Shown here: piece by piece, positions 15,052-33,533 of the stretch
Layout: each line of letters starts with the position of its first letter
How positions within the stretch are numbered: position 1 is the stretch's first letter
Source: Holdemania filiformis DSM 12042
GTDB lineage: Bacteria; Bacillota_I; Bacilli_A; Erysipelotrichales; Erysipelotrichaceae
Direction of reading: 5' to 3'
Length of the DNA stretch: 36,761 bases
Assembly: GCF_000157995.1 (NCBI RefSeq)
Contig: NZ_GG657552.1
Location: 1-36,761, forward strand
Notes under the pieces: model-generated
Seen by the model: the letters and a program-made list of their open reading frames with translations, nothing else
What the model was told of the DNA's origin: nothing
Databases searched by the model: none
Position numbers and translations under genes: made by a program

Positions 15052-15181
15052 GTTGAGTTAAGGATGAAGCCAAACAGAAATTTCTGGTAGTCCATGTTTT
15101 TTCGAGGGAAACTCAGGTAATAAAAGAAACTGATAATTCACTCATGAATAATGGTAAAATGATAGGCGAGAGGTGAAGCCT

Positions 15182-15970
15182 ATGTTTAAAACCGGTCAGT
15201 TATCCCGGGCTTTTGAAATTGATCGAACAAGCTTGAACCATTATGTCCGCACCGGTCTGCTCAATCCGGAAATGCTGGACAATCAATATCATACCTACTC
15301 GTTTCAGGATTTCGTCGCGCTTTCCTATATCCGGCATTACCGCGGTCTCGGCTTTTCCATGAACGAGATCAAAGCGCTGACACGACAGAAGGACAATGAG
15401 GAAAAGCTCCAATATTGCCAGAATGAAATGCGGACAATTGACGATCAGATCCGTCTGCTGCAGCTGAAGCAGCGCTTTCTGGAAAATTTTATGAACCTGC
15501 TTCGTTTCTATGAAAGCTATCGCGATCATCCGGTGCTGCTGATGACGGAGCCTTATTATTTTATCAAACGGGAAGCGCTGGAGGATCCAGTGCTGAAGGC
15601 GTTGTATAAGCAGCTGCCCAGCAATGAGTTCACGGCGGTTTGCGATCCGGATTTCAAAGTGACGCTGCGGCCACAGTCGGCGCAGGGACTGGTGCTGAAA
15701 GAAGCGTGGGTCAAAGAATTTCAGCTTCCACTACCGGAACAGGCTATTTTTTATCCGGCGGAACAGCGTTGCCTCTGCGCGTTTCGTGTCGGGGGAACGG
15801 AGTTTGAAATACAGCTGCAGGCGTCCTTGCAAAGTTTATATCAGACGATGGAAGAACAAGGCGTGCGGCTGCAGCGGGAGTTTGTCATTTATCTGTTGAT
15901 CAGTAAGTACAATCAGGCGGACGAATATTTCGACGTCTATGTTGATATTCCTCTGAAAATGCTTGACTGA
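15182..15970 (+). CDS. MerR-family transcriptional regulator with large effector domain
   Basis: A 262-residue regulator. The N-terminal winged helix (TGQLSRAFEIDRTSLNHYVRTGLLNPE, then YSFQDFVALSYIRHYRGLGFSMNEIK) is of MerR type; a coiled coil at about 75-115 follows and the rest is a GyrI-like-sized effector domain I cannot name. I start it at ATG 15182 with GAGAGGTG upstream; a GTG at 15173 would add three residues. Its stop overlaps the -35 box of the promoter for the next gene, whose dyad is probably its operator. It therefore likely senses a substrate of the downstream flavoenzyme. Confidence 0.82.
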   Translation: MFKTGQLSRAFEIDRTSLNHYVRTGLLNPEMLDNQYHTYSFQDFVALSYIRHYRGLGFSMNEIKALTRQKDNEEKLQYCQNEMRTIDDQIRLLQLKQRFLENFMNLLRFYESYRDHPVLLMTEPYYFIKREALEDPVLKALYKQLPSNEFTAVCDPDFKVTLRPQSAQGLVLKEAWVKEFQLPLPEQAIFYPAEQRCLCAFRVGGTEFEIQLQASLQSLYQTMEEQGVRLQREFVIYLLISKYNQADEYFDVYVDIPLKMLD

Positions 15971-15993
15971 TGAATCGTTCATCAGTTTATACT
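15963..15993 (+). promoter_or_regulatory. MerR-type promoter of the flavoprotein reductase gene
   Basis: TTGACT at 15963-15968 and TATACT at 15988-15993 are separated by 19 bp, the over-long spacing of MerR-activated promoters. The spacer holds the perfect dyad TGATGAA-TCG-TTCATCA (15968-15984). A further half site GATGAACGAT occurs at 16007-16016, inverted relative to 15974-15983. Confidence 0.75.
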
Positions 15994-16041
15994 TTTCTTG
16001 TGAATAGATGAACGATATCTGTTTTCAAGGAGGGAAAGAAT

Positions 16042-17550
16042 TTGAAAGAGTGTTCAAGAAGAAATTTCATCAAAGGCATGGCGGCGTCAGCGGCCACACT
16101 GGCTGTCGGCGGACTGTTAGCTGGATGCGCGACGAATGAAGCGCCGAAAGCTGAAAACCAAGGCGGCGGGGAACAGCGGACTTGGGATAAGGAAACTGAC
16201 GTTCTGATCTTAGGCGCCGGCGGCGCGGGTATGTGCGCAAGTTATGAAGCGACCCAGGCCGGCGCGAAAGCGCTGATTCTGGAAAAAGCGGAAAGCTTCG
16301 GCGGTACGTCGATCCGTTCCGGCGGGATTATCCAGGCTTCCGGCACCGCGGCTCAGAAAAAATTGACGAGCTATCAGGAGGATACGGCGGAAAAACATGC
16401 GCAGTATTATCTGGAAGAGGGCGAAAGCACGCTGGACGAGGAACTGGTTAAGGACATGACAGCTGGTTCGGCGGGCCATATCGAATGGCTGGAAAGTCTG
16501 GGGCTGGAATTCACCAACGTCACCGGTTCCGCTCATGTGCCGATGGCGGATGAGAGCAATTATGCCGACCGGATTCATGGAACAGCCGTCGGCGCTTCCG
16601 GGATGTTCACGGCGGTTCATGATGCGGCGGAGAAGAGCGGCGTTGAATTTATGTATAACACGGAAGCGACCCAGCTGATCGTTGAAAACGGCAAGGTCGT
16701 CGGCGCGGAAGCGATATCGGAAGGCAAAACCATCACGATCAAGGCGAATAAGGGCGTGATCATCGCGACATCCAGCATTGACCACAATCAGGAAATGAGC
16801 AAGGCGCTGAGTCCAAATCAGTATTATGACAATGCCAATTCGATCTGCGCGGCGGCGCCGACCAACACCGGCGACGGAATCCGGATGGCGGCGGCGATCG
16901 GCGGACAGCTGACGCATTTTGGCGGGGTGATCGACCTGACAGGCAAGACCAGTGCCGGCATTAACCGCCAGACGCCGCTGATGCCTTGTTTCTTCGTGAA
17001 TAAATACGGGCGTCGTTTCGCCTGCGAAGATACGACGTATGCTTTGACTTCGCGCGAACTGTGGCGGGAGATGACCAAGACGAATCATGCCTGCTACACC
17101 ATCTGCGGTCCGAATGCCGTTATGACCAAAGAAAAGCTGGATGAAATGGTCGCGTCCGGCAAAGCCTTTACGGGGGCGACGATGCAGGAACTGGCGGCGC
17201 AGATTGACGTCGACGGCGAAAATCTGCAGGCGACGCTGGATCAGTGGAACAAGGATATCACAGAATCCGGGAAGGATCGTCAGTTTGACCGTGCGACCGG
17301 ATTGGAAGTCATCGAAGGTCCGTATTACGCGTTTGAAGAAGGGTTCATGAACCTGGGCTCGATCGGCGGTCTGAAGATTACCCTGAACTGCGAAGTCGTC
17401 AACACCCAGGGCGAAGTGATTCCGGGGCTGTATGCCGCAGGCATGGCGTCCGCCGGCTGGGTGGGCCCGTTCTATCCGGGATCGGGAACCGCTTTATTGG
17501 GCGCGATTCACTGGGGCCGCAAAGCGGGCAAGGTAGTCAGCGCGCTGTAA
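16042..17550 (+). CDS. Exported Tat/lipobox FAD-dependent reductase (fumarate reductase/flavocytochrome c-like)
   Basis: The 502-residue protein starts at TTG 16042 with a strong AAGGAGGG site. It has a Tat motif (RRNFIKG, residues 6-12) and a lipobox ending at Cys29 (LLAGC), so it is predicted to be folded before export and held at the cell surface. The Rossmann motif LILGAGGAGMCAS begins at about residue 54, and the C-terminus GLYAAGMASAGWVGPFYPGSGTALLGAI is typical of the family. The segment GRRFACED fits the family's catalytic Arg region, but the His pair preceding the GG near the C-terminus of fumarate and urocanate reductases is replaced by NLGSIGG. No FMN-binding or haem domain is present, so an external electron donor is needed. 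Substrate is unknown. Confidence 0.85.
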   Translation: MKECSRRNFIKGMAASAATLAVGGLLAGCATNEAPKAENQGGGEQRTWDKETDVLILGAGGAGMCASYEATQAGAKALILEKAESFGGTSIRSGGIIQASGTAAQKKLTSYQEDTAEKHAQYYLEEGESTLDEELVKDMTAGSAGHIEWLESLGLEFTNVTGSAHVPMADESNYADRIHGTAVGASGMFTAVHDAAEKSGVEFMYNTEATQLIVENGKVVGAEAISEGKTITIKANKGVIIATSSIDHNQEMSKALSPNQYYDNANSICAAAPTNTGDGIRMAAAIGGQLTHFGGVIDLTGKTSAGINRQTPLMPCFFVNKYGRRFACEDTTYALTSRELWREMTKTNHACYTICGPNAVMTKEKLDEMVASGKAFTGATMQELAAQIDVDGENLQATLDQWNKDITESGKDRQFDRATGLEVIEGPYYAFEEGFMNLGSIGGLKITLNCEVVNTQGEVIPGLYAAGMASAGWVGPFYPGSGTALLGAIHWGRKAGKVVSAL

Positions 17551-28872: not shown

Positions 28873-28903
28873 TTGACCCGGACGCCGCGTCCGGGCTTAT
28901 ACT
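28873..28903 (+). promoter_or_regulatory. MerR-type autoregulated promoter with 19-bp spacer and perfect dyad
   Basis: TTGACC (28873-28878) and TATACT (28898-28903) are separated by 19 bp. The perfect dyad CCCGGACG-CCG-CGTCCGGG (28877-28895) fills the spacer. This is the classic geometry of MerR-activated promoters, and the MerR gene begins 22 bp downstream. No T-run follows the dyad, so it is not a terminator. Confidence 0.8.
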
Positions 28904-28925
28904 CAGACTGCGAGGTGATGAAACG

Positions 28926-29825
28926 ATGCGGATTAACGAAGCGGCCGAACATCTGGGATTGAGCCAGCGGGCGCTGAAATACTATGAAAAGGAAGGGCTG
29001 CTGGAAGTCCGGCGGGATGAAAACGGCTACCGCAATTACAGTACGCAGGATTTAGAGCGGCTGAAAAAAATATCGCTGTACCGCAAGCTGGGGATTGCGA
29101 TCAAAGATATTGAAAGTCTGTTAAATACAGAAGATCCGGTACGGCTGCGGGAAATTCTGGCGCAGAAGCGAGATCAGCTGCAACAGGATCAGACACAGCT
29201 ACAATCATTGGAAAAATATTTGGACGACGGCAATCTCGATGAGGCGTTCCAGCAAATCGACTACGAAACGATCGGCCAGGCAATTCAGGATATGTTCCCG
29301 GGCTTTACCGGTTATTACTTTATGCATCACTTTATGCCGTATTTGCAGATGCGGATCACGAGCCCTGAGCAGCAGGCCGCATATCAGCGAATCCTGACGT
29401 TTTGGGATACGACGACGATTCAAGTCCCGCTGGTCATGCGGCTGATCAGCTATCTTCAATACAAGCTGAATCGTCTGAATTTATTTGATCAGACGGAAAC
29501 GATGGAAAAACGCATGCGGCAGATGATCGAAATGAGCGATCACGATTATGAAAAACTGAAAAAACAGGTGTTAAGCGGAGTGAAGATGAAGACAAGCTTC
29601 CCGATGAAATACCATCCGGCCTTCGTCAGCCAGCGTAAATTCATGAAACGGCTTCAGGATGCCGGATATAATGATATTTTTATTCCAAGCATGATCGCGC
29701 TATCGCCGGCTTACAAACGCTATCACGACGCGCTGACAGCGGTCAACCAGCGGCTGTGCGACGATCTGGGCCTGTATTACGATTCCAACTATGTGCTGAG
29801 GCTGAAGAAAAAAGACTTGGGTTAA
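28926..29825 (+). CDS. MerR-family regulator with large C-terminal domain
   Basis: A 299-residue regulator. The N-terminal HTH (MRINEAAEHLGLSQRALKYYEKEGLLEVRR, then LERLKKISLYRKLGIAIKDIESLL) is typical MerR; a coiled coil follows at about 80-105. The remaining 190 residues are rich in aromatic residues and form an unrecognised ligand domain, larger than that of metal-sensing members. GAGGTGATG is the ribosome site. It stands alone between its own promoter and two terminators, so it regulates itself and perhaps distant genes. Confidence 0.85.
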   Translation: MRINEAAEHLGLSQRALKYYEKEGLLEVRRDENGYRNYSTQDLERLKKISLYRKLGIAIKDIESLLNTEDPVRLREILAQKRDQLQQDQTQLQSLEKYLDDGNLDEAFQQIDYETIGQAIQDMFPGFTGYYFMHHFMPYLQMRITSPEQQAAYQRILTFWDTTTIQVPLVMRLISYLQYKLNRLNLFDQTETMEKRMRQMIEMSDHDYEKLKKQVLSGVKMKTSFPMKYHPAFVSQRKFMKRLQDAGYNDIFIPSMIALSPAYKRYHDALTAVNQRLCDDLGLYYDSNYVLRLKKKDLG

Positions 29826-29919: not shown

Positions 29920-29943
29920 CCAGAGAAATTTCTCTGGTTTTTT
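29920..29943 (+). terminator. Second, perfect terminator
   Basis: The perfect palindrome CCAGAGAAATTTCTCTGG (29920-29937) is followed by six T. It insulates the next promoter. Confidence 0.85.
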
Positions 29944-29954
29944 CATTGGAATTC

Positions 29955-29995
29955 TAAAAAAAGCTTGACCTGGAGTCAACTACAGGTGTTAATGT
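29955..29995 (+). promoter_or_regulatory. NmlR/AdhR-type MerR operator-promoter of the DUF3842 operon
   Basis: TTGACC at 29965-29970, a 19-bp spacer and TAATGT at 29990-29995, with the dyad ACCTGGAGTCAACTACAGGT (29969-29988) in the spacer. This is the pattern of NmlR/AdhR-type MerR sites (AGAGT-ACTCT core). The 24 nt at 29955-29978 are identical to those at 31874-31897. Confidence 0.7.
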
Positions 29996-30023
29996 TATAG
30001 AGGACGGAAAGAGGGGATCCTGG

Positions 30024-30446
30024 ATGAAAAAAGACGCGCCGTTAGTTGTCGTGATCGACGGTCAGGGCGGCATGATCGGAAGGAAGCTCTGCGATCAGCT
30101 GCTTGAGGGTAAGCCGGATCTTTCGCTGTTAGCGCTGGGCACCAACAGCGCCGCCACCTCGGCGATGCTCAAAGGCAAAGCAAAGCAGGGCGCGACAGGG
30201 GAAAACCCGGTTCTCGTCGCAGCGCGGAGGGCCGCGGTGATTGCCGGTCCGGCGTCGATTGTCGTCGCGGATTCGATGCTCGGGGAAATCACGCCGAAGA
30301 TGGCGTCCGCGATTGGACAGAGCGAGGCGGAAAAGGTTCTGATTCCGCTGAACCGCTGCGGTATTCTGATCGCCGGGGTGCAGGACTGCCCGGTCGATGA
30401 GCTGATTGAAAAAGCGGCGGCGATGATCCTGAAGCTGATCGCCTGA
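30024..30446 (+). CDS. DUF3842 family protein
   Basis: A 140-residue protein with an N-terminal Rossmann-like start (PLVVVIDGQGGMIGRKLCDQLL) and LLALGTNSAATSAMLKGKA. I recognise it as DUF3842, a family of unknown function often found beside ECF-transporter S components, as here. The ATG follows GAGGGGATCC. It is the first gene after the MerR-type promoter. Residues such as N-S-A near 43 and GP-A-S-I near 75 could bind a nucleotide, but this is a guess. Confidence 0.8.
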   Translation: MKKDAPLVVVIDGQGGMIGRKLCDQLLEGKPDLSLLALGTNSAATSAMLKGKAKQGATGENPVLVAARRAAVIAGPASIVVADSMLGEITPKMASAIGQSEAEKVLIPLNRCGILIAGVQDCPVDELIEKAAAMILKLIA

Positions 30447-30453
30447 TTCCCGG

Positions 30454-30471
30454 TTCCGGCTGCAGCCGGAA
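30454..30471 (+). repeat. Perfect 18-nt hairpin in the DUF3842-ECF gap
   Basis: TTCCGGCTGCAGCCGGAA is fully self-complementary. There is no T-run after it, so it is more likely a processing or mRNA stability element than a terminator. The following 95 nt to the ECF gene show no recognisable riboswitch. Confidence 0.5.
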
Positions 30472-30566
30472 TCTTATGTCTTACCGGAAACAAAAAAGCG
30501 AATGCGGAAATCACGAAGGTTTCCAAGCGGCAGAGCACTGTTGTTTTTGAGTAGGAGCATACAAAG

Positions 30567-31082
30567 ATGAAAAACACGAAACACTTAATTATTACTGCCT
30601 TGTGTATGACCTTGGGCGTCGTTCTGCCGATGGCTTTCCACATGATTCCCAACGCCGGCAGCGTGATGCTGCCGATGCACATCCCGGTTCTGCTGTGCGG
30701 CTTAGTCTGCGGACCGATTCTCGGTTTGATCTGCGGGATTTTCACCCCGGTTTTATCGTCGCTGATCACGGGGATGCCGGGGCCGGCCTATCTGCCAAGC
30801 ATGATTTGTGAGCTGGCAGTGTACGGCTTGCTTGCCGGAGCGATGATCAAGCTGATCAAAACGGAAAAACCGCTGGTGAACCTGTACGCTTCGTTAATCA
30901 CAGCGATGATCGGCGGCCGGATTGTTTATGGCCTGATGAACGCTTTGATTTTCAGAGCCGGGGCGTATTCGATTCAGATGTGGATGACGGCTTCGTTCGT
31001 CACCGCGCTGCCGGGGATTATCCTGCAGCTGCTGCTTCTGCCGGCGGTCGTTTACGCACTACAGAAGGCGAAACTGGCGTGA
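30567..31082 (+). CDS. ECF transporter S component
   Basis: A 171-residue membrane protein with about five or six helices. ITALCMTLGVVLPMAFHMIP, LPMHIPVLLCGLVCGPILGLICG and PAYLPSMICELAVYGLLAGAMI fit substrate-binding S components of ECF vitamin transporters. The A-T ATPase modules and the T component are not in this window, so it would use shared ones. The substrate cannot be named. AGGAG precedes the ATG. Its stop overlaps the next gene's GTG start by 4 nt. Confidence 0.82.
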   Translation: MKNTKHLIITALCMTLGVVLPMAFHMIPNAGSVMLPMHIPVLLCGLVCGPILGLICGIFTPVLSSLITGMPGPAYLPSMICELAVYGLLAGAMIKLIKTEKPLVNLYASLITAMIGGRIVYGLMNALIFRAGAYSIQMWMTASFVTALPGIILQLLLLPAVVYALQKAKLA

Positions 31083-31591
31083 GCGAGCTGAACGAGATTC
31101 TGCTTTGGCATGTTGGACAGTACCCGGCGATGCAGCCGCAGGATGTCGTGAAGCTGATTTATCAGAACGAATTTGGCTGCGAGCATCTGATTGGGGATCC
31201 GGCGGGCATGCTGGAGTATTTAAAACGGGAGATCGCTGAAAACGCACAGCGGAAAGTCGAACGCCGTTGGGATGAGATCGGCAGCGGTCTGGTCCGGCTG
31301 CATCTGGCCGGGCTTAAGGAACAAGACGCGGAAGCGATCTTTGATGCAATGCGGCAGACGGCCGCTCAGCATTCAGGATCGGAGGACAGTTTTCAGTCGA
31401 AGCTGAAAGAAATGCGCCGGTTATGTCAGGAAGACAAGCTGCCGTTTGACGAACAAACGCTGGACGCCTGGCTGGCCGGTTATCCGGGCGGGCCGGTTCA
31501 TCATTCCGATCTGTTCCGGCATCAATATCACCCGGCCTATCGGGTTGTTTTGCGCAGTCTGGCCGCGGCCATGAGCGATCAAAATTCCTGA
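31079..31591 (+). CDS. Uncharacterised conserved-looking protein
   Basis: A 170-residue soluble protein beginning VSELNEILLWHVGQYPAMQPQDVVKLIYQNEFGCEHLIGD. I place its start at GTG 31079, in a GTGA overlap with the ECF stop; a longer frame from 30980 lies in the ECF gene. The central part is charged and helical and the C-terminus has GGPVHHSDLFRHQYHPAYRVV. The HLIGD and the His/Tyr-rich tail look like an active site, but I do not recognise the family. Position suggests it processes or senses the transported substrate. Confidence 0.65.
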   Translation: MSELNEILLWHVGQYPAMQPQDVVKLIYQNEFGCEHLIGDPAGMLEYLKREIAENAQRKVERRWDEIGSGLVRLHLAGLKEQDAEAIFDAMRQTAAQHSGSEDSFQSKLKEMRRLCQEDKLPFDEQTLDAWLAGYPGGPVHHSDLFRHQYHPAYRVVLRSLAAAMSDQNS

Positions 31592-31641
31592 ATACGATGT
31601 TCCGGAGAGTGAAGAAAAGTTAAAATTGAAAGCAGGAAAAG

Positions 31642-31687
31642 AAACTGAGAAACAACCGGCTGAAGCGTGGTGGTCTCAGTTTTTTTG
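31642..31687 (+). terminator. Terminator after the ECF operon
   Basis: AAACTGAGA at 31642-31650 pairs with TCTCAGTTT at 31674-31682, with an inner ACC/GGT, followed by T residues. Confidence 0.75.
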
Positions 31688-31873
31688 TATTTGTTAATCT
31701 ATATTGTAATTGGCTTCCTATTTTTTTGTAACTAAACGATCACTGATCATTTTCATCCGGGTTATAATTCAAATTATTATAATTACAATTATAATAAAGG
31801 GTTATGTTTGAAAGTGTTTAGAGGATTCTTTCCTTGTTTACCGTTATAGAAAATCACTTTTATAGGAAATCAA
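31688..31873. other. AT-rich region before the aldo/keto reductase promoter
   Basis: No gene is seen. It contains a perfect 24-nt palindrome at 31774-31797 and a near-repeat of TATAG(A/G)AAATC at 31846-31870. These look regulatory. Confidence 0.45.
31774..31797. promoter_or_regulatory. Perfect 24-nt AT-rich palindrome, Fur/PerR-box-like
   Basis: Arms TTATTATAATT and AATTATAATAA flank AC without a mismatch. The composition resembles Fur-family boxes such as TTATAATnATTATAA, but the half sites are 4 nt apart rather than 1, so the assignment is uncertain. It lies about 85 bp before the MerR-type promoter. Confidence 0.45.
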
Positions 31874-31914
31874 TAAAAAAAGCTTGACCTGGAGTCAGCT
31901 CTAAGGGTTACGAT
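31874..31914 (+). promoter_or_regulatory. NmlR/AdhR-type MerR operator-promoter of the aldo/keto reductase operon
   Basis: TTGACC (31884-31889), a 19-bp spacer and TACGAT (31909-31914), with the MerR-like dyad GGAGTCAGCTCTAAGG in the spacer. The first 24 nt are identical to the promoter at 29955. The small MerR regulator at 33171, in the same operon, is the likely ligand. Confidence 0.72.
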
Positions 31915-31955: not shown

Positions 31956-33104
31956 ATGATCTATCGAGCGTTGGGCAACACCGGTTTACAGGTCAGTGAA
32001 ATCGGACTGGGCTGCGAAGGATTTACGGAACAGGAAGGGATGGGAACCTATGCGTTAGTCGACGCGGCGGCGGATGCAGGAATCAATTATTTTGATCTGT
32101 ATTCGCCGGATCCTAATCTGCGTCTGCATTTAGGCAAAGCGCTGGCGGGCCGGCGCGATCAGTTTATTATCCAGGCCCATTTATGCTCGGTGTGGAAAGA
32201 CGGTCAGTATAAGCGCACGCGTATACTGGAAGAAGTCCAGGCCGGCTTTGAGGATTTGTTACATCAGCTGCATACCGATCATGTGGAAATCGGCATGATT
32301 CATTACGTGGATTCGCTGAAGGATTGGCAGGCGGTGGCGGAAGGGCCGGTGATGCGCTATGCGCAGCAGTTAAAGCAGGAAGGCCGGATTGGACACATCG
32401 GGTTGAGCAGTCATAATCCCCAGGTGGCGATTCAGGCGGTGGAAAGCGGTCTGATCGAGGTGTTGATGTTCAGTGTCAATCCATGCTATGACCTGCAGCC
32501 GGGCGACGAGGATCTGGAAAAGCTGTGGGCGGATGAAAGCTACGCCCAGCCGTTAGTCAATATGGATCCCCAACGGGAAGCCTTATATGAACTATGCCAG
32601 CGTCAAGGCGTCGGCATCACGGTCATGAAGCCATTTGGCGGTGGCGATCTGTTGGATGAGAAGCTGTCGCCGGCAGGCAAAGCGCTGACGCCGGTTCAAT
32701 GTCTGCATTACGCCTTAACCCGGCCAGGTGTCGCCACTGTCTTGCCAGGTGCGCATTCCGTTGGGGAGCTGCGCCAGAGCGTGGCTTATGAAACGGCGAG
32801 CGCAGCGGAGCGGGACTATGCTTCAGCGCTGGCTTCCTTCCCGAAGATCAGCTGGAAGGGACATTGCATGTATTGCGGTCACTGCGCGCCGTGTCCGATG
32901 GGCATTGATATCGCGACGGTGACGAAGTTCTTGAATCTGGTGAAGGCGCAGGGGGAAATGCCGGAGACGGTACGTGAACATTACGCGGTCTTGGAACATA
33001 CGGCTTCCGAGTGCGTCGGCTGCCATGCCTGTGAAAACCGCTGTCCGTTTGACGTGGAAGTCACTGAGAATATGCGGCAGGCGGTCAACGTGTTCGGTAA
33101 ATAA
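31956..33104 (+). CDS. Aldo/keto reductase with C-terminal ferredoxin-type clusters
   Basis: The 382-residue protein has an AKR barrel (YRALGNTGLQVSEIGLGC, then AGINYFDLYSPDP with D47 and the catalytic Tyr49) and a C-terminal ferredoxin region: CMYCGHCAPCPMGID and CVGCHACENRCPFDV, for two [4Fe-4S] clusters. The barrel position normally holding the catalytic Lys (usual IATK) reads IIQAH (residues 71-75), so the reaction may differ from NADPH-ketone reduction. Start has CAGGAGGGCTGG. It is followed by a MerR regulator, a common pair. Confidence 0.87.
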   Translation: MIYRALGNTGLQVSEIGLGCEGFTEQEGMGTYALVDAAADAGINYFDLYSPDPNLRLHLGKALAGRRDQFIIQAHLCSVWKDGQYKRTRILEEVQAGFEDLLHQLHTDHVEIGMIHYVDSLKDWQAVAEGPVMRYAQQLKQEGRIGHIGLSSHNPQVAIQAVESGLIEVLMFSVNPCYDLQPGDEDLEKLWADESYAQPLVNMDPQREALYELCQRQGVGITVMKPFGGGDLLDEKLSPAGKALTPVQCLHYALTRPGVATVLPGAHSVGELRQSVAYETASAAERDYASALASFPKISWKGHCMYCGHCAPCPMGIDIATVTKFLNLVKAQGEMPETVREHYAVLEHTASECVGCHACENRCPFDVEVTENMRQAVNVFGK

Positions 33105-33170: not shown

Positions 33171-33533
33171 ATGAACATTGCTGAAGTCAGTAAGAAATAT
33201 GATTTAACCCAGGATACGCTGCGTTATTATGAGCGCGTTGGCCTGCTCCCCCGGGTGAACCGCACGTCCAGCGGAATCCGGGATTATTCGGAGGAAGACT
33301 GCCACTGGGTAGAGTTTATTAAATGTATGCGGCAGGCGGGCCTTCCGATCGAGGCCTTGATCGAGTATGTCGCTTTATATCAGAAGGGCGATGAAACAAT
33401 CCAGGCCCGCAAACAGCTGTTAATCGAACAGCGGGAACAGCTGATCGAACGCATCCGCGAGATGAATGAAACATTGGAGCGGCTGAATTACAAAATCGAA
33501 GCTTATGAGCGCAACGCCGAATGCCGGCCCTAG
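33171..33533 (+). CDS. Small MerR-family regulator (NmlR/AdhR-like)
   Basis: A 120-residue regulator: MNIAEVSKKYDLTQDTLRYYERVGLLPRVNRTSSGIRDYSEEDCHWVEFIKCMRQAGLPIEALIEYVAL is typical of the short MerR group next to aldo/keto reductases and alcohol dehydrogenases, with a coiled-coil tail and Cys56 near the HTH as in aldehyde or thiol sensors. It lies 66 nt after the reductase, shares its transcript, and probably acts on the promoters at 29955 and 31874. AGGAGATTCAAG is the ribosome site. Confidence 0.87.
   Translation: MNIAEVSKKYDLTQDTLRYYERVGLLPRVNRTSSGIRDYSEEDCHWVEFIKCMRQAGLPIEALIEYVALYQKGDETIQARKQLLIEQREQLIERIREMNETLERLNYKIEAYERNAECRP

What the first reader, a model, noticed from the sequence alone, without database searches (positions are those of the whole stretch)
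29955..31914. Identical 24-nt MerR-type promoter blocks 1.9 kb apart define a small regulon
Seen: 29955-29978 and 31874-31897 are identical, both include TTGACC followed by 19-bp spacers and a MerR-like dyad. Known: NmlR/AdhR-type MerR proteins bind such AGAGT-ACTCT dyads in 19-bp spacers. Inference: the MerR at 33171 controls the aldo/keto reductase, itself, and the DUF3842-ECF-unknown operon, linking a transporter of unknown substrate to electrophile or aldehyde stress.
Basis: partly seen in the sequence, partly recalled or inferred. Interest (0 to 1): 0.72.

Follow-up and report, generated by a model that had tools for sequence, protein, structure and literature searches.

The report
Stress-type MerR regulon in Holdemania
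Two near-identical switchable promoters in a gut bacterium are almost certainly turned on by the small MerR regulator encoded next to them, and the same switch controls a third gene elsewhere in the genome, so several uncharacterised genes (an iron-sulfur reductase, a vitamin-type transporter part and three proteins of unknown function) belong to one small stress-type regulon.

Summary
In detail: an identical 24-mer lies at 29955-29978 and 31874-31897. Each copy is the -35 half of a MerR-type promoter with a 19-bp spacer and a TGGAGT-nn-ACT dyad. The regulator assignment is supported by comparative genomics, not only by resemblance. The dyad lies beside orthologues of the 33171 MerR in 73 of 79 loci across Bacillota (0 of 79 shuffled) and tracks that regulator between genomes (Fisher p about 6e-8). 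The own genome, a Holdemania, has exactly three copies; the reversed-pattern control gives 0 in 98 genomes. The third lies upstream of a DUF362 gene, which in a sister family shares one operon with the same MerR and an Fe-S aldo/keto reductase. In another Holdemania genome ECF, unknown gene, reductase and MerR form one operon behind one dyad. The main rival, the MerR at 28926 beside the first site, has its own different, conserved dyad at 28873. The sensor works like NmlR/AdhR (Cys52 conserved) but scores below the NmlR equivalog cut-off. Inducer and transported substrate are unknown. The kind of regulation is known; the regulon's content (DUF362, DUF3842, ECF-S, a protein without a PDB fold match) is new.

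The parts
29965..29995 (+). MerR-type promoter/operator of the DUF3842-ECF-unknown operon, TTGACC-19 bp-TAATGT with dyad ACCTGGAGT-CA-ACTACAGGT
   Evidence: conserved in G003 and G002
31884..31914 (+). MerR-type promoter/operator of the aldo/keto reductase-MerR operon, TTGACC-19 bp-TACGAT
   Evidence: conserved in G003 and G002
29955..29978 (+). first copy of the identical 24-mer (A-tract, -35 box, left half-site)
31874..31897 (+). second copy of the identical 24-mer
33171..33533 (+). NmlR/AdhR-like MerR regulator, 120 aa, Cys44 and Cys52; proposed regulator of all three sites
   Evidence: Pfam MerR_1, NmlR NF041849 152.9 bits below cut-off 175, orthologue-site association
31956..33104 (+). 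aldo/keto reductase with C-terminal 4Fe-4S dicluster domain, 382 aa
   Evidence: PF00248 and Fer4_8
30024..30446 (+). DUF3842 protein, 140 aa, small Rossmann-like alpha/beta fold in the model
   Evidence: PF12953; model and fold search
30567..31082 (+). ECF transporter substrate-specific component, 171 aa, substrate unknown
   Evidence: PF12822
31079..31591 (+). unknown conserved protein, 170 aa, confident model without PDB fold match; start overlaps the end of the ECF gene by 4 bases
29920..29943 (+). terminator-like hairpin with T run between the MerR299 gene and the DUF3842 operon
   Evidence: consensus match only
28873..28903 (+). separate, different MerR-type promoter of the MerR299 gene (dyad CCCGGACGC-C-GCGTCCGGG); not part of the regulon, serves as the contrast

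Best explanation
The 33171 protein is an NmlR/AdhR-like MerR activator. A dimer sits on TTGAC-yTGGAGT-nn-ACTcyArG-nGTTA between a -35 and a -10 box 19 bp apart. When conserved Cys52 (perhaps with Cys44) is modified by a reactive electrophile or carbonyl, it distorts the DNA and lets RNA polymerase start. In this Holdemania it drives three promoters: DUF3842-ECF S component-unknown (29965), the Fe-S aldo/keto reductase with the regulator itself (31884), and a DUF362 gene on another contig. Shown by sequence: sites, their number, conservation, operon structure and co-occurrence with the regulator. Inferred: binding, activation by distortion, the Cys52 sensor and the carbonyl/electrophile signal. 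Unknown: the inducer and the ECF substrate. The confidence is for the regulator and its three promoters; for the electrophile signal alone it is about 0.6.
For: Exactly three sites in the own genome, 0 in the reversed control over 98 genomes. Site beside the MerR orthologue in 73 of 79 loci across Bacillota, 0 of 79 shuffled. Genomes with an orthologue of at least 50% identity have sites in 14 of 16, others in 5 of 44, p 6e-8. Synteny with both sites kept in G003 and G002; one site in front of ECF-unknown-AKR-MerR in G001; site in front of ECF-unknown beside the MerR in G009. Site-MerR-DUF362-AKR operon in the sister family. DUF362 sites track the MerR: 11 of 12 against 2 of 18. The G199 site in front of unknown-ECF was seen first and its MerR at 60% identity found afterwards. 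Cys52 in 80 of 80 close orthologues, the residue AdhR and NmlR need (PMC4776306).
Against: No binding or expression data. The 31884 dyad is asymmetric and the -10 box of 29965 is weak. Score for NmlR is below its cut-off. The Cys52 count is partly biased because one search peptide contained it. Site and MerR do not always go together: G089 has the MerR but no site at its DUF362 gene, and G096 and G099 have a site but only 38-39% relatives. Genomes are related, so p values are too small.
Confidence: 0.87

Rival explanations
1. The 299-aa MerR at 28926, directly upstream, controls the 29965 promoter, and the 33171 MerR controls only 31884.
For: It is the nearest regulator gene to site 29965, on the same strand, and is kept there in G003 and G002.
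Against: It has its own perfect dyad CCCGGACGC-C-GCGTCCGGG at 28873, kept in G003 and nearly so in G002, with a different half-site. The G001 and G009 ECF-unknown operons carry the TGGAGT site next to the 33171 orthologue with no MerR299 gene nearby. The same 24-mer at 31884 needs one reader.
Confidence: 0.05
2. Same regulator and sites, but the signal is a metal ion, as for CueR, ZntR or CadR, rather than an electrophile.
For: Dyad and spacer are of the general MerR kind, and CueR and ZntR models also match (63 and 54 bits).
Against: NmlR scores 152.9 bits. The conserved cysteines are 44 and 52; no C-terminal cysteine is conserved in 80 close orthologues. Target genes are reductases, not metal exporters.
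Confidence: 0.08
3. The 24-mer is a recent duplication without regulatory meaning.
For: 24 exactly identical bases, including the A-tract upstream of the -35 box.
Against: Both sites with their A-tracts are kept in G003 and G002. Independent sites of the same design occur in 28 of 98 genomes and beside most orthologues.
Confidence: 0.02

Closest known systems
NmlR (Neisseria, Haemophilus, Streptococcus) and AdhR=YraB (Bacillus subtilis) MerR regulators of carbonyl/thiol stress
   Same: Best family match (NF041849, 152.9 bits), Cys52 conserved, 19-bp-spacer dyad promoters, oxidoreductase targets
   Different: Below the equivalog cut-off of 175; no adhC or estD beside it; targets are an Fe-S aldo/keto reductase, DUF362 and an ECF operon; extra conserved Cys44. 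In some other relatives (L045, L046) the neighbours are more AdhR-like, with an iron alcohol dehydrogenase
Listeria monocytogenes MerR regulator of PDB 3gp4
   Same: Closest solved structure, E 3e-33 over residues 1-114
   Different: Lacks the cysteine at the position of Cys52 (alignment); function not known to me
ECF transporter S components (PF12822)
   Same: Family membership; S component without ATPase or T-protein genes in its operon
   Different: Not FolT: 28.9 bits against a cut-off of 60. Substrate unknown; no riboswitch hint in the window or 17 related loci
Nickel-pincer nucleotide (Lar) gene clusters of the sister family
   Same: DUF3842, and in L137/L138 also DUF362 and aldo/keto reductases, lie with larE, larB, larC; some have the dyad in front
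   Different: Holdemania genomes lack larC

Membership tests
MerR family activators | N-terminal MerR winged helix and MerR DNA-binding region | tested here: met
   PF13411 66.7 bits, PF00376 50.9, PF09278 40.2, all above cut-off
MerR family activators | dyad within a 19-20-bp spacer between -35 and -10 | tested here: met
   19 bp at both window sites and at the DUF362 site
MerR family activators | activation by DNA distortion | not testable with these tools
   needs biochemistry
NmlR/AdhR clade | score over the NCBIfam NmlR equivalog cut-off | tested here: not met
   152.9 bits against 175
NmlR/AdhR clade | conserved Cys52/54 | tested here: met
   80 of 80 close orthologues, with a partial search bias; also nearly all close orthologues of the independent set. 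Not exclusive: more distant relatives share it
NmlR/AdhR clade | adhC (or adhA) and estD or yraA type neighbours | tested here: not met
   window neighbours are AKR-FeS, DUF3842, ECF, unknown
NmlR/AdhR clade | response to carbonyl or thiol stress | not testable with these tools
   needs expression data
Nickel-pincer (Lar) gene cluster | larC in the genome | tested here: not met
   PF01969 absent from the own genome and three genus mates, present in 34 of 98 relatives

The most novel reading that the evidence does not exclude
The regulon marks a so far undescribed functional module: DUF362, Fe-S aldo/keto reductase, DUF3842, an ECF S component and a protein with no known fold act together to import and reductively process one compound, and are induced by a reactive form of that compound. 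In the sister family the same pieces (DUF362-AKR-AKR-DUF3842) sit with larE-larB-larC, so DUF3842 may serve nickel-pincer or related 2-hydroxy/2-oxo acid chemistry there.
Probability: 0.35. Interest if true: 0.65.

Novelty: new member of a known kind. Interest (0 to 1): 0.45.

Why it matters
It gives a testable operator and regulator for a set of widespread genes without known function in gut bacteria (DUF362, DUF3842, an orphan ECF S component, a protein without PDB fold match). Knowing the inducer of this one regulator would point to what the transporter carries and what the Fe-S reductase acts on.

Tried and rejected
Riboswitch clue to the ECF substrate: none in the window or 17 related loci. 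Nickel-pincer (Lar) function for the Holdemania operon: larC absent from the genus. Solved-structure match for the ECF protein: none meaningful. Fold match for the unknown protein: none, best E 1.4. DUF3842 fold: only weak Rossmann-like matches without a clear function. Papers on DUF3842: none held; the AdhR primary paper is not held. The first loose pattern at 3 mismatches was no better than its reversed control; the tighter pattern replaced it. One Rfam call was over the size limit and one Pfam call failed on coordinates. Considered and rejected: MerR299 as common regulator, a duplication without function, a metal-sensing regulator (see rivals).

Full report
OBSERVATION. The 24-mer TAAAAAAAGCTTGACCTGGAGTCA is identical at 29955-29978 and 31874-31897. 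It covers an A-tract, the -35 box TTGACC and the left half-site. Both copies reach a -10 box after 19 bp: TAATGT at the first, TACGAT at the second. The first dyad is ACCTGGAGT-CA-ACTACAGGT (8 of 9 pairs); the second is less symmetric. The strict core occurs only twice in the 3.93-Mb genome. With the pattern TTGACNTGGAGTNNACTNNANGNGTTA at up to 2 mismatches the genome has exactly three sites; over 98 genomes 28 have sites and the reversed pattern gives none. Chance expectation is about 0.013 per genome. An earlier, looser pattern was not above its control.

ORGANISM. The closest named relatives are Holdemania sp. Marseille-P2844 (95% identical MerR; contig length equal to that of G003) and H. 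massiliensis AP2 (88%; contig length equal to that of G002), so the window is from a Holdemania species. Which species was not established.

ANATOMY. Site 29965 precedes DUF3842 (30024-30446), an ECF S component (30567-31082) and an unknown 170-aa protein (31079-31591). Site 31884 precedes an aldo/keto reductase with a C-terminal 4Fe-4S domain (31956-33104) and the MerR (33171-33533). A terminator-like hairpin with a T run at 29920-29943 separates the DUF3842 operon from the upstream MerR299 gene (consensus match only). An inverted pair AAACTGAGA/TCTCAGTTT at 31642-31682, read, lies between the unknown gene and site 31884. The MerR has no dyad of its own and follows the reductase after a short gap; in G001 the two genes overlap, so autoregulation through the reductase promoter is likely.

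WHICH REGULATOR. (a) MerR299 at 28926 has its own dyad, CCCGGACGC-C-GCGTCCGGG, in a 19-bp spacer at 28873, kept in G003 and nearly so in G002. A third MerR in the window (15173) also has a distinct dyad beside it, at 15963. (b) The TGGAGT dyad follows orthologues of the 33171 protein: 73 of 79 loci from named genomes, 0 of 79 shuffled loci. (c) In 60 relatives, 14 of 16 genomes with an orthologue of at least 50% identity have sites, against 5 of 44 others (p 6e-8). Those five carry more distant relatives. (d) The next MerR in the own genome found by that search is only 32% identical, and no such dyad lies near it.

CONSERVATION. G003 and G002 keep the whole order MerR299-site-DUF3842-ECF-unknown-site-AKR-MerR. 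G001 has one site followed by ECF-unknown-AKR-MerR. G009 has two divergent sites, one in front of ECF-unknown and one in front of the transcript that carries the MerR. A distant genome, G199, has a site in front of unknown-ECF and was afterwards found to hold the MerR at 60% identity; G139, with DUF3842-ECF-unknown but no site, has no such MerR.

THIRD MEMBER. The third own-genome site lies 59 bp upstream of a DUF362 gene. All four Holdemania genomes have a site there. In sister-family genomes the order is site-MerR-DUF362-AKR (L048, L106-L108). Of 30 DUF362 relatives, 13 have a site at up to 5 mismatches 24-95 bp upstream. Its presence tracks the MerR: 11 of 12 against 2 of 18, or 6 of 7 against 0 of 14 with one genome per genus, p about 1e-4. 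DUF362 also lies near homologues of the ECF protein (L174, L177, L185, L188, L189), the unknown protein (L176) and the reductase (L188), so these genes probably work together.

MECHANISM. The best family match is NmlR (152.9 bits; cut-off 175), far ahead of CueR (63). Cys52 is the residue B. subtilis AdhR needs, and the counterpart of Cys54 in H. influenzae NmlR, for the formaldehyde response (PMC4776306). It is present in 80 of 80 close orthologues; Cys44 in 78. One search peptide contained Cys52, so this count is partly biased, but an independent set also keeps it in nearly all close orthologues. The likely mechanism is thiol modification, then DNA distortion and activation at a 19-bp-spacer promoter; the distortion step is general MerR knowledge (PMC5045206). 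Inducer, binding and induction are inferred.

LINK TO LAR GENES. In the sister family DUF3842 lies in larE-DUF3842-cbiMQO-larB-larC type operons, with a good dyad in front in L130 and weaker ones in L132 and L133, and in DUF362-AKR-AKR-DUF3842-larE-larB-larC in L137, partly also L138 (Pfam support for LarC, CbiM, AIRC-type LarB and PP-loop LarE). Holdemania lacks larC, so this does not explain the window operon, but it suggests that DUF3842 serves more than one transport or cofactor system.

UNKNOWN PROTEIN. The model is confident (pLDDT 94.4) and has no PDB fold match (best E 1.4). Invariant residues are D22, K25, Q29, G33, E51, R73, H142, P152, Y154 and R155. A longer homologue has a C-terminal P-loop (AAA_18/kinase-like) domain.

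VERDICT. The finding is real and the regulator assignment well supported. It is a new member of a known kind (an NmlR/AdhR-like MerR regulon) with unusual content. The aldehyde or electrophile signal is plausible but untested, and the transporter substrate is unknown.

Noticed in passing
window 31079-31591: Unknown 170-aa protein beside the ECF S component: confident AlphaFold model (pLDDT 94.4) without any PDB fold match; homologues lie beside ECF genes or behind smpB, and longer forms carry a P-loop kinase-like domain.
   Followed up: partly
L130, L132, L133, L137, L138: DUF3842, otherwise uncharacterised, lies in nickel-pincer (larE/larB/larC) and CbiMQO operons in the sister family, some with the NmlR-like dyad in front; L137 also joins DUF362 and aldo/keto reductases to these genes.
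   Followed up: partly
window 15173-17550: Another MerR gene (15173-15970) beside its own 19-bp-spacer dyad at 15963 (TGATGAATCGTTCATCA), in front of an FAD_binding_2 flavoprotein with a TAT signal (16042-17550).
   Followed up: partly
window 28873-29825: MerR299 (299 aa) with its own perfect G+C-rich dyad CCCGGACGC-C-GCGTCCGGG, conserved in the genus; the function of its large C-terminal region is unknown.
   Followed up: partly
window 30450-30473: G+C-rich inverted repeat CCGGTTCCGGCTGCAGCCGGAATC between DUF3842 and the ECF gene; it could lower read-through inside the operon.
   Followed up: no
L045, L046: Orthologues of the MerR sit with iron alcohol dehydrogenase, flavodoxin-like and carboxymuconolactone decarboxylase-like genes, closer to the classical AdhR setting.
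   Followed up: no
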